Assembly (NCBI RefSeq): GCF_003116835.1
Contig: NZ_BFFO01000003.1
Location: 62,001-126,000, forward strand
From: Lactococcus termiticola
GTDB taxonomy: Bacteria; Bacillota; Bacilli; Lactobacillales; Streptococcaceae
DNA length: 64,000 nucleotides
Direction of reading: 5' to 3'
Within the stretch, counting starts at the first letter, position 1, and each line of letters begins with the position of its first letter. The translations under genes were made by a program, and so were the position numbers. Shown in pieces: positions 5,020-55,608 of the stretch. The notes under the pieces were generated by a model. The model made no database searches. It was not told the origin of the DNA and saw only the letters and a list, made by a program, of their open reading frames with translations.

Positions 5020-5988
5020 TCACTGTCCTTCGTTTGTCTTGCTAGCAATCTTTATTTTTTCAAGGATGATGCCTTGCTCGGCCAGCTTTTCAGCCAGCTT
5101 GGTCAGGTCTCTTCCATTTTTGGAGAAAAGAATAAGGTTCTCTCCAAAGCCAGAGCCTGAGACCTTGGCGACCAGGTCGGTTTCTTTATTGAGCGTTTCA
5201 AGTGCCAGGCTGAGCTTATCTGTCAGGTAGGCTTCGGGTAGGCTGTCAATCAGGAGCGCTTGATTTTCTATCAAGGCCAGCTTGAAGGCTTCAAAGTCAG
5301 CTGTCTGAATCGCCCTAGCAAGCTCTTCTACCAACTGGTCTGAACGCTCGAAAAAGCCTTCAGGCAGAGCAATCTTCAGCTTGTCGCCCGTCTTAACAGA
5401 CTTGCCTGTCTTGACGATATAGGTCTCCCAGGCTGGCAGAAGCAGGCTGTCAATTTTCCAGTTTTGAAAATCAGCATCAGGCGACTGGTAGGCCATCAGG
5501 CCACCGGTCAAGATACTGGCCACATCCCCCATAGAGCCAGAGCCCTGAACCTCTCGGTGAGCCCGACCAGCGATCTCAAAGCAAGCCTTCTGGTCAAGGC
5601 CGAGCCCCAAAAAGCTATTGACAGCCTGGACTACAGCCACAACAACTGCGGCTGACGAGCCGTAACCCGTCTTATCCTCTCCGTAGCCCAGCGGGCTGTC
5701 AATCTCAATTCCCAATTCTGGAAATCCCTGTCTGCCTGAAGCCTTCAAGGTCTTCTGCAGGGCGGTCAGGGCAAAAGCCCATCCGCCGGCTTCGATTTCA
5801 AAGGCATTGATTAAAAAGTCATGGTCGGCTAAGGGCACATTGGTCCTAAGCCGTGAATGGCCTTGTCTCTCAGAAATCCTGACCTTCAAGCCGGTCTCGA
5901 CTGCCACACAGATGGCCTTGCCATTGCTCCTCGTCACAGCATATTCTCCTGCGACAAAGAGCTTGCCGGGAATCGTCAGCTCAATCAT
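5020..5988 (-). CDS. mvaK2: phosphomevalonate kinase
   Basis: A 322-residue GHMP kinase that phosphorylates 5-phosphomevalonate to the diphosphate. The N-terminal KLFVAGEYAV motif and the ATP loop PLGYGEDKTGYGSSAAVVVA (near residues 95-115, Gram-positive type with an inserted acidic segment before GYGSSA) are clear; VAKVSGSGFGENLILF is the C-terminal GHMP motif 3. The ATG overlaps the end of mvaD by eight bases and the stop is six bases before fni, so the three are coupled. The length is slightly short for the family (about 330-360). Confidence 0.93.
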   Translation of the reverse strand: MIELTIPGKLFVAGEYAVTRSNGKAICVAVETGLKVRISERQGHSRLRTNVPLADHDFLINAFEIEAGGWAFALTALQKTLKASGRQGFPELGIEIDSPLGYGEDKTGYGSSAAVVVAVVQAVNSFLGLGLDQKACFEIAGRAHREVQGSGSMGDVASILTGGLMAYQSPDADFQNWKIDSLLLPAWETYIVKTGKSVKTGDKLKIALPEGFFERSDQLVEELARAIQTADFEAFKLALIENQALLIDSLPEAYLTDKLSLALETLNKETDLVAKVSGSGFGENLILFSKNGRDLTKLAEKLAEQGIILEKIKIASKTNEGQ

Positions 5989-50022: not shown

Positions 50023-52665
50023 CTACTTCTTCAACTCCTCAATTCGAGCCACCGTACTATCAAACTTCTCCTGATAATCCTCCAGCTTATCCTTCTCCTT
50101 CTGGACGACTTCAGGTTTGGCATTTGCTACAAACTTCTCGTTAGAAAGCTTGCGGTTGACCATGTCGAGTTCTTTTTGCCATTTGGCGAGCTCTTTATTA
50201 AGGCGTTCGATTTCTTCGTCGATGTTAATCAAACCAGCCAGCGGGAAGTAAAGCTCAGCCCCCGTGATGACGGCAGACATGGCCTGCTCAGGCACGTCGA
50301 CCTGCTCAGCAATCTGGAGCTCAGATGGATTGGTGAAACGTTCGATGTAGGCAGATACAGCATTCAAGAAGTCTGCTTTATCAGATTTCACAAACATTGG
50401 CACAGCTTTAGAGAGCGGAGTGTTCACTTCTGCGCGGATATTGCGGACAGCTGTGATAAGCTCAATCAGCATGGCAACGCCGTCATTCGCTTCAGCATCA
50501 TCAAATTCTGGACGCACTTCTGGGTATTTCGCGACCACGATAGAACCCGTGGTATTTGGCAGCTTCTCAAAGATTTCTTCTGTGAAGAAAGGCATGATAG
50601 GGTGGAGGAGACGGAGCACTTGGTCGAGGACATGCACCAGCACACTACGTGTGACTTCTTTTTCAGCTTCGTCTTCACCGTAAAGGACTTCCTTGGTCAA
50701 CTCGATGTACCAGTTAGCAAATTCGTCCCAGATGAAGTTATAGAGCATGTGCCCAGCCACACCAAACTCGAACTTGTCCATTTGCTCAGTGACACGTTTC
50801 ACCGTGTCATTGAGACGAGTGAGAATCCAGCGGTCTGTAACGTTACCTGCCGACTTTTCAGCGACTTTAGCGAGATTGCTTGCGACCATCTCCGCTGAAA
50901 TTTCACCGACATTCATGAGAATGTAGCGGCTAACATTCCAGATTTTGTTAATGAAATTCCAGGCGGCGTCCATTTTATCATAGCTGAAACGAACATCTTG
51001 ACCTGGTGCAGAACCATTTGAGAGGAACCAACGGAGGGCATCCGTCCCATATTGCTCGATGACATCCATCGGGTCAATCCCATTGCCGAGGGATTTCGAC
51101 ATCTTGCGCCCTTGTTCGTCACGAATCAGACCGTGAATCAGGACATTTTCAAATGGACGCTGATCTGTGAACTCAAGACTTTGGAAAATCATCCGTGACA
51201 CCCAGAAGAAGATGATATCATAGCCTGTCACCAAAGTTGATGTTGGGAAGTAGCGTTTGAAGTCTGCCGAGTCAGTGTCAGGCCAGCCCATTGTAGAGAA
51301 AGGCCAAAGGGCAGAGCTAAACCAAGTGTCCAGCACGTCTTCTTCCTGCACCCAGCCTTCGCCTTCGGGTGCTTCCATACCAACGTAAGTTTCGTCGCCA
51401 CGATACCAAGCAGGAATTTGATGTCCCCACCAGAGTTGACGAGAAATCACCCAGTCATGAACGTTTTCCATCCATTGCATGAAGGTGTCATTGAAACGAG
51501 GGGGATAGAAAGTGACCTTGTCGTCTGTGCCTTGGTTGTCAATGGCTTGCTTAGAAAGCTCATCCATTTTAACGAACCATTGAGTTGACAAGCGTGGCTC
51601 TACGATAACGCCTGTACGCTCAGAGTGGCCGACTTCGTGAACAAGCTCTTTTACAGAGACGAGTTGACCGAGTTCCTTGAGGTCCGCAACAATTTGCTTG
51701 CGGGCTTCAAAGCGGTCGAGGCCTTCGTATTTACCACCTTCAGCGTTGATGGTGCCGTCGTCATTCATCATGTTAATCATCGGCAAATCATGACGACCAG
51801 CGACTTCAAAGTCATTCGGGTCGTGAGCAGGCGTGATTTTAACGACACCGGTTCCTTTTTCCATGTCAGCGTGTTCGTCAGTGAGGATTGGGATTTTACG
51901 ATTAACCAATGGAACAATCACATTTTTACCGACCAAATCCTTGTAGCGGTCATCGGCAGGATTGACGATAACAGCTGTATCTCCGAGCAAAGTCTCAGGA
52001 CGAGTCGTCGCAATTTCCACCGTGCCTGAGCCATCTTCGAGTTTGTAGAGAATGTTGTAGAAAGCGCCGTTGACTTCTTTGTGGATTACTTCGATATCAG
52101 AAAGGGCAGTTTTGGCTTTTGGATCCCAGTTGATGAGCTTTTCGCCACGGTAAATCCAGCCTTTTTCATACAGTTTAACAAAGACCGTACGAACAGCCTT
52201 GTTCAAACCTTCATCAAGGGTGAAACGCTCTCTGTCATAGTCAACAGAAATCCCCATCTTCGCCCACTGCTCGTGGATGGTTTCAGCGTACTCATCTTTC
52301 CATTCCCAGACCTTGTCAAGGAATTTTTCACGACCAAGGTCATAACGCGAAATGCCTTGCTCTGCAAGACGTCCCTCAACCTTAGCCTGAGTCGCAATCC
52401 CGGCGTGGTCCATCCCCGGCAACCAAAGCGTATCAAAGCCCTGCATGCGCTTTTGACGAATGATGATATCTTGAAGCGTCGTATCCCAAGCGTGCCCGAG
52501 GTGGAGCTTACCCGTCACGTTTGGTGGTGGAATCACGATGCTGTAGGGATGACTTTCAGATGTTGAGCCATTTGAGCCCGGCTTGAATACGCCAGCATCA
52601 AGCCATTTTTGGTAGCGGCCGGCTTCTACTTCTTTTGGGGTGAATTTTGTGTTTAGTTCTTGCAT
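50023..52665 (-). CDS. valS: valyl-tRNA synthetase
   Basis: An 880-residue class I synthetase. HIGH form [15 protein letters not shown] near residues 46-60, CP1 editing domain with [18 protein letters not shown] form [12 protein letters not shown] near 525, the anticodon domain, and a C-terminal coiled coil of about 65 residues ([20 protein letters not shown]). The RBS is GGAGGAAACT. The T-box leader that should control it lies 2.1 kb upstream, beyond two unrelated genes reading in the same direction. Confidence 0.97.
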
Positions 52666-52697: not shown

Positions 52698-53018
52698 CTA
52701 TAGCTCTGTATACTTTTTATTGTTATTCTTACTTTTTTCAACTGGATATTTCTTGTTATTTTTGACTAGTTTTTCTTTAATAATACTATCAATATCTAAA
52801 TTCAAATTATCAGCCATCATATAAGAATATATTAAAACGTCCGCTAATTCATCCTTTAATTTTTCGATGTCTGAAATACCTTCACTAGCACTTTTCCATT
52901 GGAATAATTCCAATAATTCTGAGGCTTCAAGGGAAATAGAAATCGCTAAATCTTTTTCATTATGAAACTGTCTCCAATTCCTATCATCACGAAATCTATT
53001 GATATCATCTATTATCAT
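52698..53018 (-). CDS. MazG-like nucleotide pyrophosphohydrolase
   Basis: A 106-residue all-alpha NTP pyrophosphatase. The metal motifs are [14 protein letters not shown] (ExxE) and [16 protein letters not shown] (ExxD). I start at [15 protein letters not shown] (53018), with AAAGGA upstream, giving a 14-base overlap with the DUF2075 gene, so translation is coupled. The short single-domain form resembles the dCTP pyrophosphatase / integron MazG group. The DNA is strongly AT-rich compared with neighbours. The lysine/asparagine-rich tail after residue 90 is not part of the fold. It may lower a nucleotide pool or hydrolyse modified nucleotides. Confidence 0.85.
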
Positions 53019-54696
53019 GGCTTTTTCCTTTCTGGGCCTCAATCAATGCTTTTTGCAATGATTCGTCGCAGGCATAAATATAAAGTCCATAAACCCCTCG
53101 AGTTAACAAAACATTAAGTTCATTATTTAGGTTCCGTTTTATTGCAGCCTCTCCATGCTTTCTTTCGATTGCTTTCTTATTTTTCGACGCCCTTGCATCA
53201 AAAAAGATTTCCTTTTTTTGAGAATCATATTTGACGCTAGGACCTATAATAACTCCTGCAAAGTTTAAATCAAAGCCTTGGATTGTAAATGTGCTTCCAA
53301 CTTCTTTAATTGATTCAACACTCTCTGCCCAGGGCAACTGATCCGAATTGCTCGTATAGTAGTAATTCCAAGGCATTGAAAATCCATCAATCTCTACAGA
53401 CCACATTTGTTTATCACTTTTCCAATCCCAATCGTAAGAAGCAAGCATCCTTGATAATCCATATTCTGTATTTTTTGCCTTATTTTTTATTGCTTCATAC
53501 ATCTCTTCAGGTGTTTCAAAAATTTTCAATTCATACGTGTCATCCTCAGGAATTTTACCAATTTTATGTTTCCAGATAAAGTCATCTAACCAATTATTTG
53601 TTTCCTCCAACATCTGCATTCTATGCTGTTCCTGGAGCTCAATTAATTTATTTTCCAGATTAGCTTCATGTTTTAATTTCAAAACTTCTTCATTATCTAC
53701 AAACTGTTCTCCAGTTAATATTTGGTTCTCATCAAAAACCAAGATAACTATTTTAGCTATTTTTCTCAGAGCCTCCAAATGCGTTGAACCAAATTTCTTG
53801 GGAAAAGCCTGGCCATTTCTAGTCGCAAGCAGATGTCCTTCATCCACAATAACAACGTCAACTTTTTTGCCCTGAAATTGCTTCAAAAATGAATTTGGCT
53901 TCATCACTCGCTGCTCATCAAACCCCAGTTTTTTTGAAATTTGCCGGTAGACAGATAATTGTTCATTATGGTTGACTAAAACAAATGGTGCCAAGCCATT
54001 TAGCAGGACGTTATCATCTCCTTTTGATTCAAGTTGCAATTCATAAAAAACATTGGACATTAAAACAGTTTTACCACTTCCAGCATTTCCCGTAACAAGT
54101 ATTAAAGCATCCTCATCTCGAGAGAGTGACTCTTCAATTTTCATGATAATCTGTTTCTGAGCCCTTCTTTGTGAATCACTAAGCTCTTTAAAAGGTGATG
54201 ACTTATATAAGGCAGAATTTTTCACATTATTCAAATCCGGGAAAAGTAGTGGTTCTTCCTGGCTTAATTTTTTCCAACTCTCTTCAAAAATTTCTTGAAT
54301 TTTTTCTTTTGGATAATATTTCCCTTGCGGATTACCTTTACGATTATTAATTCCCCCATCACTTTTTATAGATTCTACTCCTAAAAAATAATTTATGAAT
54401 CTATTCTCTAAATCAAGTGTCACTGATTTATTCGAAAATTCATTTCCCAAAACAAGCATTCGAGAAGAAGGAGATGAATTTAGTTTCTGCCAATCATTTC
54501 TTTTCTCAATTAGATGCTGCTTTGTCCTCCGAGAGATATCATTTGTCTCTCCAACATAAACAGTATACTTTGTGTCTTTAATATCATAAACAAAATAAAC
54601 TGTTGGAAAATCAATTAAGAATCTATTATAGGAGGCATCAATCGATTGAAGGGCTTTACCAGAGTAATCTATTTTTTTAACAGCAATATCTACCAT
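53005..54696 (-). CDS. GIY-YIG nuclease fused to a DUF2075 SF1-helicase-like ATPase
   Basis: A 563-residue protein. Residues 31-110 form a GIY-YIG nuclease: VYF (33-35), YVG (47-49), R56 and the catalytic Glu in LENRF (98). The ATPase follows: Walker A GNAGSGKT (203-210), Walker B VIVDEGH (282-288), a second acidic motif VFDEN, and C-terminal motifs EVGSTFTIQGFDLNFAGVII (split: GSTFTIQGFDLNF) and NELNVLLTRGVYGLYIYA like helicase motifs V and VI. This is the DUF2075 (Schlafen-3-like) family. AT-rich (17 of 60 G+C at 53701-53760), unlike its surroundings, which suggests transfer. GGAG precedes the ATG. A defence nuclease is a reasonable guess; function is not known. Confidence 0.85.
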   Translation of the reverse strand: MVDIAVKKIDYSGKALQSIDASYNRFLIDFPTVYFVYDIKDTKYTVYVGETNDISRRTKQHLIEKRNDWQKLNSSPSSRMLVLGNEFSNKSVTLDLENRFINYFLGVESIKSDGGINNRKGNPQGKYYPKEKIQEIFEESWKKLSQEEPLLFPDLNNVKNSALYKSSPFKELSDSQRRAQKQIIMKIEESLSRDEDALILVTGNAGSGKTVLMSNVFYELQLESKGDDNVLLNGLAPFVLVNHNEQLSVYRQISKKLGFDEQRVMKPNSFLKQFQGKKVDVVIVDEGHLLATRNGQAFPKKFGSTHLEALRKIAKIVILVFDENQILTGEQFVDNEEVLKLKHEANLENKLIELQEQHRMQMLEETNNWLDDFIWKHKIGKIPEDDTYELKIFETPEEMYEAIKNKAKNTEYGLSRMLASYDWDWKSDKQMWSVEIDGFSMPWNYYYTSNSDQLPWAESVESIKEVGSTFTIQGFDLNFAGVIIGPSVKYDSQKKEIFFDARASKNKKAIERKHGEAAIKRNLNNELNVLLTRGVYGLYIYACDESLQKALIEAQKGKSHDNR

Positions 54697-54744
54697 TATT
54701 CATTCTCCAAAATTCCAAATAAAATACCGCACCCAAACACCCTA

Positions 54745-54912
54745 AAAATAGGACGCTCACGCGCGGTACCACCTAAATTCCTGTCAAATTTGACAGACAC
54801 TCATTCATATTTAACTGAAAACCCAGCAACCTTCAGTCCCGTCGACTAACGCTTTCCAGCAAACAGCGCCTCTCTTAAAGTCTAGGTGACTTACTCCTCT
54901 GAGTGATTTAAC
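54745..54912 (-). promoter_or_regulatory. T-box riboswitch leader, tRNA-Val type
   Basis: Minus strand: AGTAA in stem I (near 54890), AAGAGAGG in the distal part, then GGACTGAAGGTTGC, hairpin stems, the T-box AGGTGGTACCGCG (54762-54774), and a terminator GG...CGC / GCG...CC with a T tract (54749-54771). The T-box bulge TGGT pairs with ACCA, the 3' end of tRNAs with discriminator A; tRNA-Val has A, tRNA-Gly has U. GTT in GAAGGTTGC is the likely Val specifier, though GGT overlaps it. It precedes the DUF2075 gene, not valS directly. Confidence 0.88.
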
Positions 54913-54915
54913 CTG

Positions 54916-54944
54916 ATTATAGCATGAATAGATAGGCTTTTCAA
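54916..54944 (-). promoter_or_regulatory. T-box transcript promoter
   Basis: Minus strand TTGAAA (54939-54944), 17-base spacer, TATAAT (54916-54921) with an extended TGC. The -35 lies inside an inverted repeat ATAGGCTTT / AAAGCCTAT (54932-54961). Confidence 0.85.
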
Positions 54945-55002: not shown

Positions 55003-55608
55003 CTATTTCGGCCGAATACTCTCCAAAAAGCCATTCAGCCCTTCCAACTGCTGAATCTGCCGGTTACACTGCTCACTATCCAGACAAATATAATTCCCCT
55101 GCTTGGTATAAGTCCCGTCAGCCCCAGACTTGGTCACAGCGAGAAACTGAGTTACCGCGCTGGTCTTCTGACAAATACTGCAGATGTTCTGAGTCTGACC
55201 AGAAATAGTCCCCCAGTAGCCTTGACCATCCCCAGTGACGATGTACTTGCGACCTGAGGCAATATCATTCCATGCGTAGAAGCTGTAAGCTTTCAGGTCA
55301 GTCATTTCCATATCTGGAACTTTTAATTTTTTGACCTTCTTAAAGAGCTTCGCCATATTGCCGGGCATCTCAAAGGCTTCGACCATAGGTTTCAAGCCTT
55401 CCAGCAGGCGCTCAGCCTGCTCGGTTGACAGCTTCTGGTCGCCGATAGCCTCGATAAAGTCGGCCAATTCATCGGTCAAGCCTTCAATTTCAGCTACGAC
55501 TTGGGCGTAAACCGCTGCCAGCGTATCCTTGTCATTCACCGAATGATAGGCGTTTACCATGTCAAAGGTCAGATGCTTGATTCGGTTAAATTCATGATTT
55601 TTTAACAT
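55003..55608 (-). CDS. FusB-family elongation factor G-binding protein
   Basis: A 201-residue two-domain protein: an N-terminal four-helix part (about 1-85) and a C-terminal treble-clef zinc domain with CSICQKTSAVTQF and YICLDSEQCNRQ. FusB/FusC proteins bind EF-G and release it from the ribosome, giving fusidic-acid resistance; chromosomal relatives in lactic acid bacteria are common and may have a housekeeping role. The gene follows DUF1912 directly (its ATG is next to that stop). Confidence 0.8.
   Translation of the reverse strand: MLKNHEFNRIKHLTFDMVNAYHSVNDKDTLAAVYAQVVAEIEGLTDELADFIEAIGDQKLSTEQAERLLEGLKPMVEAFEMPGNMAKLFKKVKKLKVPDMEMTDLKAYSFYAWNDIASGRKYIVTGDGQGYWGTISGQTQNICSICQKTSAVTQFLAVTKSGADGTYTKQGNYICLDSEQCNRQIQQLEGLNGFLESIRPK

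What the first reader, a model, noticed from the sequence alone, without database searches (positions are those of the whole stretch)
52698..54912. A GIY-YIG/DUF2075 helicase-like + MazG-like cassette inserted between a tRNA-Val T-box and valS
The T-box leader (54745-54912) precedes a 563-residue GIY-YIG+DUF2075 protein and a MazG-like pyrophosphohydrolase with a 14-base gene overlap; valS follows in 32 bases. Normally such a leader adjoins valS. The two genes are AT-rich (17 of 60 G+C in a counted sample) against a G+C-rich surrounding. The result is that a nuclease-ATPase and a nucleotide hydrolase, types often seen in phage defence, are expressed when tRNA-Val is uncharged. An infection or nutrient drop that uncharges tRNA could thus raise a defence module together with valS.
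Basis: partly seen in the sequence, partly recalled or inferred. Interest (0 to 1): 0.85.

Follow-up and report, generated by a model that had tools for sequence, protein, structure and literature searches.

The report
Swappable gene slot before valS
In lactococci and streptococci, the stretch between a tRNA-sensing RNA switch and the essential gene it controls is used as a parking place for changing extra genes, here a nuclease-helicase and a nucleotide-cleaving enzyme that look like anti-virus defence, so that such genes would be switched on when valine runs short.

Summary
The pair is not lactococcal housekeeping: of 16 genomes of the genus, 2 hold it there, 8 have an empty gap and 6 hold other genes. 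It is one case of something wider. In 90 Streptococcaceae loci, T-box and valS are 542-5813 nt apart in 76 and side by side in 9; no T-box core was found in 5. Outside the family they are side by side in 37 of the 43 loci with a core. The valS-proximal genes form 32 families in 75 loci; 8-10 match PADLOC defence models, most are GNATs, kinase-like or unknown. Relics of valS ends and a chimeric T-box point to recombination with one-sided homology. The pair is a linked module, also on plasmids beside restriction-type genes. Defence function and any benefit from T-box control are inferred, not shown. Nine literature searches listed no description of the slot.

The parts
54916..54944 (-). promoter-like site (TTGAAA-17-TATAAT, TG before the second hexamer) ahead of the T-box
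   Evidence: consensus scan
54746..54910 (-). T-box leader RF00230
54828..54830 (-). specifier codon GUU (Val), read from UGAAG-GUU-GC in the specifier loop
   Evidence: Rfam alignment; layout of the specifier loop recalled
54714..54775 (-). T-box sequence (GGUGGUACCGCG, 54762-54773) and terminator hairpin
   Evidence: fold -28.3 kcal/mol, z -5.6
53005..54696 (-). GIY-YIG nuclease + Schlafen-group-3 helicase, 563 aa (cargo gene 1)
   Evidence: catalytic residues invariant in an alignment of 14 rows
52698..53018 (-). MazG-like / dCTPP1-like nucleotide pyrophosphohydrolase, 106 aa (cargo gene 2)
50023..52665 (-). valS, valyl-tRNA synthetase, the gene the T-box belongs to
55003..55608 (-). EF-G-binding protein (FBP) gene, the upstream neighbour on the other side of the site

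Best explanation
The pair is one occupant of a cargo slot that Streptococcaceae keep inside the T-box-valS transcription unit. DNA carrying a cargo gene joined to a piece of valS (or of the T-box) recombines by homology at that piece, with a non-homologous or T-box join at the other end. Cargo is tolerated because it lies in the sense strand and lets transcripts run on into the essential valS. Each occupant thereby comes under the valine T-box: low read-through when tRNA-Val is charged, high when it is not. In this genome the occupant is a two-gene module: a GIY-YIG nuclease fused to a Schlafen-type helicase, which most likely cuts or processes invading DNA (or RNA), and a dCTPP1-like pyrophosphohydrolase, which most likely hydrolyses dCTP or a modified dNTP. 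Shown: the slot, its turnover, the Val specifier, co-orientation, relics, intact catalytic residues, linkage of the pair. Inferred: co-transcription, regulation, recombination route, defence function.
For: Empty, pair-filled and otherwise filled gaps in 8, 2 and 6 of 16 genomes of the genus; the RF00230 model finds the leader upstream of valS in all 16, over its cut-off in 8. The valS tree puts the two pair-bearing genomes (G000, G010) in different clades; G010's sister G006 holds other cargo. T-box core to valS 542-5813 nt in 76 of 90 family loci, 9 at 180 nt or less, 5 without a core, against 37 at 400 nt or less, 6 farther and 23 without a core in 66 loci outside the family. Cargo ORFs 186 sense, 2 antisense; median gap to valS 23 nt. 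In 40 other T-box loci of six of the genomes no foreign ORF above 73 aa stands before the usual gene. Relics: a valS 5' end between cargo genes in G012 and upstream of valS in L111; valS 3' ends beyond other genes downstream of valS in L119, L111 and G006; G002's T-box has stem I of its sister clade but a 3' half nearer to G000's (86 of 105 aligned columns against 69-70 of 116-117); a RhuM C-terminal relic in G006. Pair linkage: the MazG-like gene lies near the nuclease-helicase in 19 of 24 family loci examined, 15 of the 16 closest, and in 6 of 8 further order loci; plasmid copies lie beside HsdS/HsdM, DUF262, restriction endonuclease, HIRAN and DUF2357 genes. GIY-YIG Y34, Y47, R57, E97, Walker K209 and D285-E286, and MazG E34, E37, E57, D60 invariant. 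dCTP pyrophosphatase 1 is among ORF2's nearest solved relatives, E 4e-15.
Against: No expression or phage data. Most cargo is not recognisably defence: 8-10 of 75 valS-proximal genes reach PADLOC models at 1e-6, against 1 of 85 control genes (Fisher 0.010-0.002, relatedness not corrected), while 26 of 75 belong to the GNAT/flavin-reductase-like or kinase-like clusters. The genes upstream of the T-box vary too: 23 clusters in the same 75 loci, though 41 of the 75 fall in one. Filled or empty needs only 2 changes on the lactococcal valS tree, so occupancy itself is not gained and lost often there; the content turns over. valS 5' relics were found in only 2 independent genomes of 82 loci scanned, one of them only modestly above the null. 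The 683-nt gap of G049 holds no ORF of 60 aa or more. The pair itself meets no PADLOC system; only its helicase part resembles Nhi (E 7e-11).
Confidence: 0.7

Rival explanations
1. Passive niche: the gap is merely a permissive place where recombination at the conserved valS leaves foreign genes. T-box control is a by-product without benefit, and the cargo is a random sample of accessory genes.
For: Most cargo is metabolic-looking or unknown; the other side of the T-box varies too; away from this slot the pair has no T-box: no core in any of 36 stretches with 1.5-kb flanks (one of them, L002, is G010's own slot with the T-box beyond the stretch, four are repeats of one genome, and several are distant relatives).
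Against: 40 other T-box loci of six of the genomes are not used so; PADLOC-type genes are more common in the slot than among the control genes.
Confidence: 0.45
2. T-box as immune switch: infection lowers charged tRNA-Val, the T-box opens, and the nuclease-helicase and dNTP hydrolase rise together with valS.
For: Val specifier and good terminator; no promoter-like site listed between T-box and ORF1; nuclease or restriction-type cargo in several species at the same place.
Against: Nothing here shows that phage infection uncharges tRNA-Val; much of the cargo is not defence; the pair occurs elsewhere without a T-box nearby.
Confidence: 0.12
3. The pair is a housekeeping or stress unit (nucleotide clean-up plus DNA or RNA repair helicase-nuclease) rather than defence.
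For: In several streptococcal genomes the pair sits among ordinary-looking chromosomal genes; dCTPP1-like enzymes clean nucleotide pools (recalled).
Against: Patchy spread (25 of 295 family genomes; 72 of 246 order genomes at E 1e-60 including helicase-only relatives), degenerate copies, plasmid copies beside restriction-type genes.
Confidence: 0.25

Closest known systems
T-box riboswitch control of valS (RF00230)
   Same: leader, Val specifier, terminator, valS downstream
   Different: one to several foreign genes stand between leader and valS and share the leader
Defence hotspots between core genes (for example PMC10121019, PMC10250203; titles and abstract starts seen in the listing)
   Same: conserved flanks, variable contents, some of them restriction or candidate defence genes
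   Different: the slot lies inside an essential, tRNA-regulated operon; cargo is small and in sense; contents only partly defence
Homology-facilitated illegitimate recombination / trapping of foreign DNA in S. pneumoniae (start of the abstract of PMC3240628 in the listing; passages of PMC3784515 and PMC2884548, which cite Prudhomme 2002)
   Same: foreign DNA joined on one side to a homologous piece; partial duplications of the homologous gene
   Different: here such events recur at one gene, valS, and leave cargo inside its operon; mechanism inferred from relics only
Nhi (nuclease-helicase immunity; full name recalled), PADLOC PDLC02372
   Same: helicase part, E 6.6e-11
   Different: only model positions 183-380 of 470 match; here the nuclease is GIY-YIG and a MazG-like partner is present
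Schlafen proteins
   Same: the helicase domain is Pfam's Schlafen group 3 helicase
   Different: no Schlafen RNase core domain among the Pfam matches
dCTP pyrophosphatase 1 (DCTPP1 / RS21-C6)
   Same: ORF2 residues 8-106 of 106 align, E 3.8e-15
   Different: substrate of the bacterial protein untested

Membership tests
T-box riboswitch | RF00230 match above cut-off with T-box sequence and terminator | tested here: met
   93.9 bits against 93; terminator fold z -5.6
T-box riboswitch | specifier codon fits the regulated synthetase | tested here: met
   GUU, Val, in the alignment; the reading frame of the specifier loop is recalled
T-box riboswitch | response to uncharged tRNA | not testable with these tools
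   needs RNA work
GIY-YIG nuclease | domain match and catalytic Tyr, Arg, Glu | tested here: met
   27.1 bits against 22.6; Y34, Y47, R57, E97 invariant in 14 rows; which residues are catalytic is recalled
Schlafen family | Schlafen RNase core domain | tested here: not met
   among the Pfam matches only the group 3 helicase domain is Schlafen-like
MazG / all-alpha NTP pyrophosphatase | domain match and ExxE...ExxD metal site | tested here: met
   PF12643 E 4e-24; E34, E37, E57, D60 invariant in 12 rows; the motif is recalled
Known anti-phage system in PADLOC 2.0.0 | both proteins match one system's models | tested here: not met
   ORF2 no match, ORF1 only partial helicase or GIY matches
Nhi | match over the whole protein | tested here: not met
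   183-380 of 470 model positions only
Genomic hotspot (conserved flanks, variable contents) | same flanks with empty site and different inserts in relatives | tested here: met
Genomic hotspot (conserved flanks, variable contents) | variation between strains of one species | not testable with these tools
   one genome per species is held
Defence island | contents mostly or significantly defence genes | tested here: inconclusive
   8-10 of 75 against 1 of 85 controls, most cargo unknown or other
Homology-facilitated illegitimate recombination | partial duplication of the homologous anchor next to foreign DNA | tested here: met
   valS 5' relics in 2 genomes, 3' relics in 3
Homology-facilitated illegitimate recombination | experimental transfer | not testable with these tools
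   needs transformation experiments

The most novel reading that the evidence does not exclude
Streptococcaceae use the valine T-box as an inducible docking operon: accessory genes, nucleases and restriction systems among them, are exchanged by transformation at valS and put under a sensor of uncharged tRNA-Val, so that starvation or infection that drains charged tRNA-Val raises defence together with valyl-tRNA synthetase.
Probability: 0.12. Interest if true: 0.88.

Novelty: new variant of a known kind. Interest (0 to 1): 0.62.

Why it matters
If right, a single essential operon (T-box-valS) is a family-wide acquisition site for small accessory modules in lactococci and streptococci. It gives a short, precisely bounded place to look for new defence genes: the gap held nuclease, HIRAN, RhuM, restriction-modification and other PADLOC-candidate genes in several species, and many AT-rich unknowns. 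It also ties accessory genes to a tRNA sensor, which makes the question of whether tRNA charging controls bacterial immunity directly testable, and it shows in sequence how one-sided homology at an essential gene can feed gene gain.

Tried and rejected
Reading the specifier from the AGUC and AGAU motifs of stem I gave changing codons. The Rfam alignment showed the specifier to be the codon after UGAAG: GUU in 14 of the 15 lactococcal leaders listed and GUA in G006 (G010's leader was not picked up by that pattern). The idea of specifier drift was dropped.

A suspected cargo gene between a T-box and aspS in G012 is HisRS as I read its sequence. Two ORFs of 70 and 73 aa before pheS in G012 and serS in G001 I take for chance.

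Searching for the pair as phage cargo: 4 of 50,697 phage records match, all below 60% identity; not pursued. Solved structures of ORF1: no meaningful hit.

Counting clusters alone as proof of a hotspot was rejected, because the genes upstream of the T-box also vary. The T-box core was sought by a regular expression; at equal base frequencies it is met by chance about 0.025 times per 6.5 kb, so one or two of the 85 cores could be false.

Literature searches on T-box or valS with defence or hotspots, and on DUF2075, GIY-YIG, MazG or Schlafen: (one search was on recombination). None of the listings shows a paper describing the slot; the listings are capped at 8-20 papers each. I searched passages of PMC2494555, PMC5398294, PMC11514479 and PMC12322248: no mention of such a slot in the passages of the first, and no hit for valS in the other three; passages of PMC12839542 concern other Schlafen proteins. 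No paper was read whole. Most subscription papers and all bioRxiv preprints are outside that library.

Not done: a fold of ORF1.
Full report
What is there. On the minus strand of the window, a promoter-like site (54944-54916) is followed by a T-box leader (54746-54910, RF00230), a 563-aa gene (53005-54696), a 106-aa gene that overlaps it by 14 nt (52698-53018), and valS 32 nt further on (50023-52665). The 563-aa protein has a GIY-YIG domain at 32-102 and a Schlafen-group-3 helicase domain (PF09848) at 197-544; the small one is MazG-like (PF12643), with dCTP pyrophosphatase 1 among its nearest solved relatives. G+C over the pair is about 0.34-0.35. The Rfam alignment reads the specifier as GUU, valine. 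The terminator region folds well. No promoter-like match was listed between terminator and ORF1; 13 matches in the whole stretch compare with 8.3 +/- 3.5 in shuffles. The tools withhold the genome's name. That the family is Streptococcaceae follows from contigs shared with named Streptococcus records (for example G068:C10 and the S. vicugnae record, both 687,837 bases); that the genus is Lactococcus is my inference.

Empty sites in the genus. ORF1 occurs in 3 of 18 genomes: here, at the same place in G010 (73% identity), and elsewhere in G017 (46%). valS was found in all 18, but in two (G015, G016) it is cut by contig ends. In the other 16 the T-box model finds the leader upstream of valS, over its cut-off in 8; the gap is empty in 8 (core to valS 74-127 nt) and filled in 8. 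Filled contents, read: G000 GIY-YIG-helicase + MazG; G010 GDSL hydrolase, Mrr-type restriction endonuclease, RhuM (PADLOC PDC-S23, 2e-110), GIY-YIG-helicase + MazG; G001 GNAT, GDSL hydrolase, GIY-YIG protein (PDC-S14, 1e-47); G014 GDSL hydrolase, unknown, GIY-YIG-like protein (PDC-S14, 2e-17; Pfam GIY-YIG below its cut-off); G012 GNAT, GDSL hydrolase, PDC-S18 protein (6e-94), SnoaL-like; G006 GDSL hydrolase, unknown, HIRAN protein (PDC-M03B, 1e-14, part of the model); G003 alpha/beta hydrolase; G002 unknown 164-aa protein. (The GDSL call was tested by Pfam in G010 and G014 and the GNAT call in G012; the other copies follow by BLAST cluster. PDC stands for phage defence candidate; recalled.) On a valS tree G000 and G010 lie in different clades and G010's sister G006 has other cargo; filled against empty needs only two changes. 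So occupancy is rather stable while content turns over, and the same pair has reached the same gap on two branches, by transfer or by loss elsewhere.

The slot is family-wide. I put together 90 loci: the 16 above, 60 of the 289 family genomes with a valS hit (picked by me from the printed, ranked and capped list, long contigs preferred, other genera included) and all 14 named Streptococcaceae loci. One genome is in twice (L111 = G034) and three pairs are near-identical just upstream of valS. A T-box core lies 542-5813 nt before valS in 76, within 180 nt in 9, and was not found in 5, of which G027 is cut by a contig end and L115 has only 2.3 kb. One of the 76, G049, has no ORF of 60 aa or more in its 683-nt gap. 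An Rfam scan of 10 of the family loci found the T-box in 9 at E up to 1e-5, all 9 under the gathering score of 93 bits (one at 92.7, the rest 41-71); GUUGC stands at the specifier place in all 8 T-box alignments printed. In the 66 other loci the core is within 400 nt of valS in 37, farther in 6, and not found in 23. Cargo ORFs are 186 in sense and 2 antisense (sense counted from 60 aa, antisense above 100 aa), and the median gap from the last cargo gene to valS is 23 nt. The 75 valS-proximal genes form 32 BLAST clusters. Their mean G+C is 0.340, against 0.391 for the first ORF upstream of the T-box in 85 loci. As a control for position, those upstream genes form 23 clusters in the same 75 loci, with 41 in one cluster: that side varies too, but less.

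Are the contents defence? Partly. At 1e-6, PADLOC models match 8-10 of the 75 valS-proximal genes (one search gives counts per model, not the union, and shows 25 of 26 models). Seven are identified: G160 and G089 (type II specificity), G001 and G014 (PDC-S14), G006 (PDC-M03B), G129 (MkoC) and L133 (PDC-S29, 4e-9); the one PDC-S01 match (1e-104) must be an eighth, as none of those seven tables shows it. Of 85 upstream control genes 1 matches, a GlgB model. Several other cargo genes that I tested had no match. One streptococcal gap (G160) holds a type IIG restriction-methyltransferase, a RhuM relative and a specificity subunit. L111 carries what I read as two DNA methyltransferases and further genes upstream of valS (no profile run). 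But the commonest valS-proximal occupants are kinase-like (15) and GNAT/flavin-reductase-like (11) genes, and many are unknown. I therefore call it an accessory slot that defence-like genes share.

Is it special to valS? In five genomes with a filled valS gap plus one locus of a sixth, I read 40 other T-box loci, the ones listed for the five (a capped list), in stretches of 2.7-5.4 kb. As I read the N-termini (no profile search), each leads to its usual gene (synthetase, his, trp or met genes) with no foreign ORF above 73 aa before it. The genomes were chosen for their filled valS gaps, so this compares sites, not rates. One related case: in G001 a 365-aa gene stands between pheS and pheT, and in G012 a DUF262-type gene (my reading; PADLOC NsnA, 4e-36) and a 193-aa gene follow pheS; pheT was not among the ORFs shown for that stretch.

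How cargo may get in. (i) G012 has a 72-nt copy of the valS 5' end (78%) between two cargo genes. L111/G034 has one 0.7 kb upstream of valS. In a scan of 82 loci the best 40-nt windows were 39 and 38 (L111/G034) and 32 (G012); every other locus had 27 or less, and the null maximum was 29. (ii) valS 3'-end copies lie downstream of valS in L119, L111 and G006. In L119 the stretch up to the copy holds a DUF262-like and a second gene; in L111 and G006 it holds what read as an oxidoreductase and a regulator, partly in antisense (my readings). (iii) G002's leader has the stem I of its close relatives but a 3' half nearer to that of G000; G014 carries its T-box 3' half twice, identical over 43 nt. 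(iv) G006 keeps an 18-20-aa C-terminal relic of a RhuM like that of G010. New cargo seems to arrive joined to a fresh piece of valS or T-box, which fits integration with homology on one side only, as described for S. pneumoniae and others (start of the abstract of PMC3240628; passages of PMC3784515 and PMC2884548). This route is inferred.

The pair as a module. Of 24 family loci examined, the MazG-like gene lies near ORF1's homologue in 19; among the 16 closest homologues in 15, in either order and three times divergently (L042, L044, L047). Of the 12 order loci fetched, four repeat family genomes; of the other 8, 6 have it. Searches reached 1.5 kb only. The hydrolase is better conserved than its partner (for example 69% against 44%). 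GIY-YIG, Walker and MazG catalytic residues are invariant. Of 36 plasmid records with a match, 10 cover at least 80% of the query; the three I opened lie beside HsdS/HsdM, a restriction endonuclease, DUF262, HIRAN, a DEAD-box helicase and DUF2357 genes, and two of the three carry a nucleotide pyrophosphohydrolase gene next to it. Away from the valS gap no T-box core lies in the stretches scanned and no T-box passes the Rfam cut-off in 20 of them, so the T-box is a property of the site, not of the module. Degenerate copies occur.

Verdict. Observation confirmed. The reading as a T-box-driven defence module is possible but unproven; the sound and newer result is a family-wide variable slot inside the T-box-valS unit. 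Against it stand the lack of any expression or phage data, the mixed contents, the variable upstream side, and the few relics.

Noticed in passing
L257 (G012) and L267 (G001): Genes stand directly after pheS in another T-box synthetase operon: a DUF262-type protein (PADLOC NsnA, 4e-36) plus a 193-aa protein in G012, and a 365-aa protein between pheS and pheT in G001.
   Followed up: partly
L119:12664-16342: Downstream of valS in a Streptococcus MAG a DUF262-like and a second gene are followed by a copy of the valS 3' end (77%), as if cargo also enters at the other end of valS.
   Followed up: partly
L072:3040-3111 (G012): Relic of a valS 5' end with start codon between two cargo genes.
   Followed up: yes
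L070:5152-5194 and 5314-5356 (G014): Identical 43-nt repeats of the T-box 3' half, 162 nt apart.
   Followed up: no
L152 and L165: T-box core 607 and 991 nt before valS with one gene between (a GNAT as I read it in an Acholeplasma; a 305-aa protein in a Bacilli MAG), so single-gene cargo may occur outside Streptococcaceae.
   Followed up: no
L048 near 998-1363: A broken copy of the nuclease-helicase gene lies beside a CRISPR array (Rfam CRISPR-DR22).
   Followed up: no
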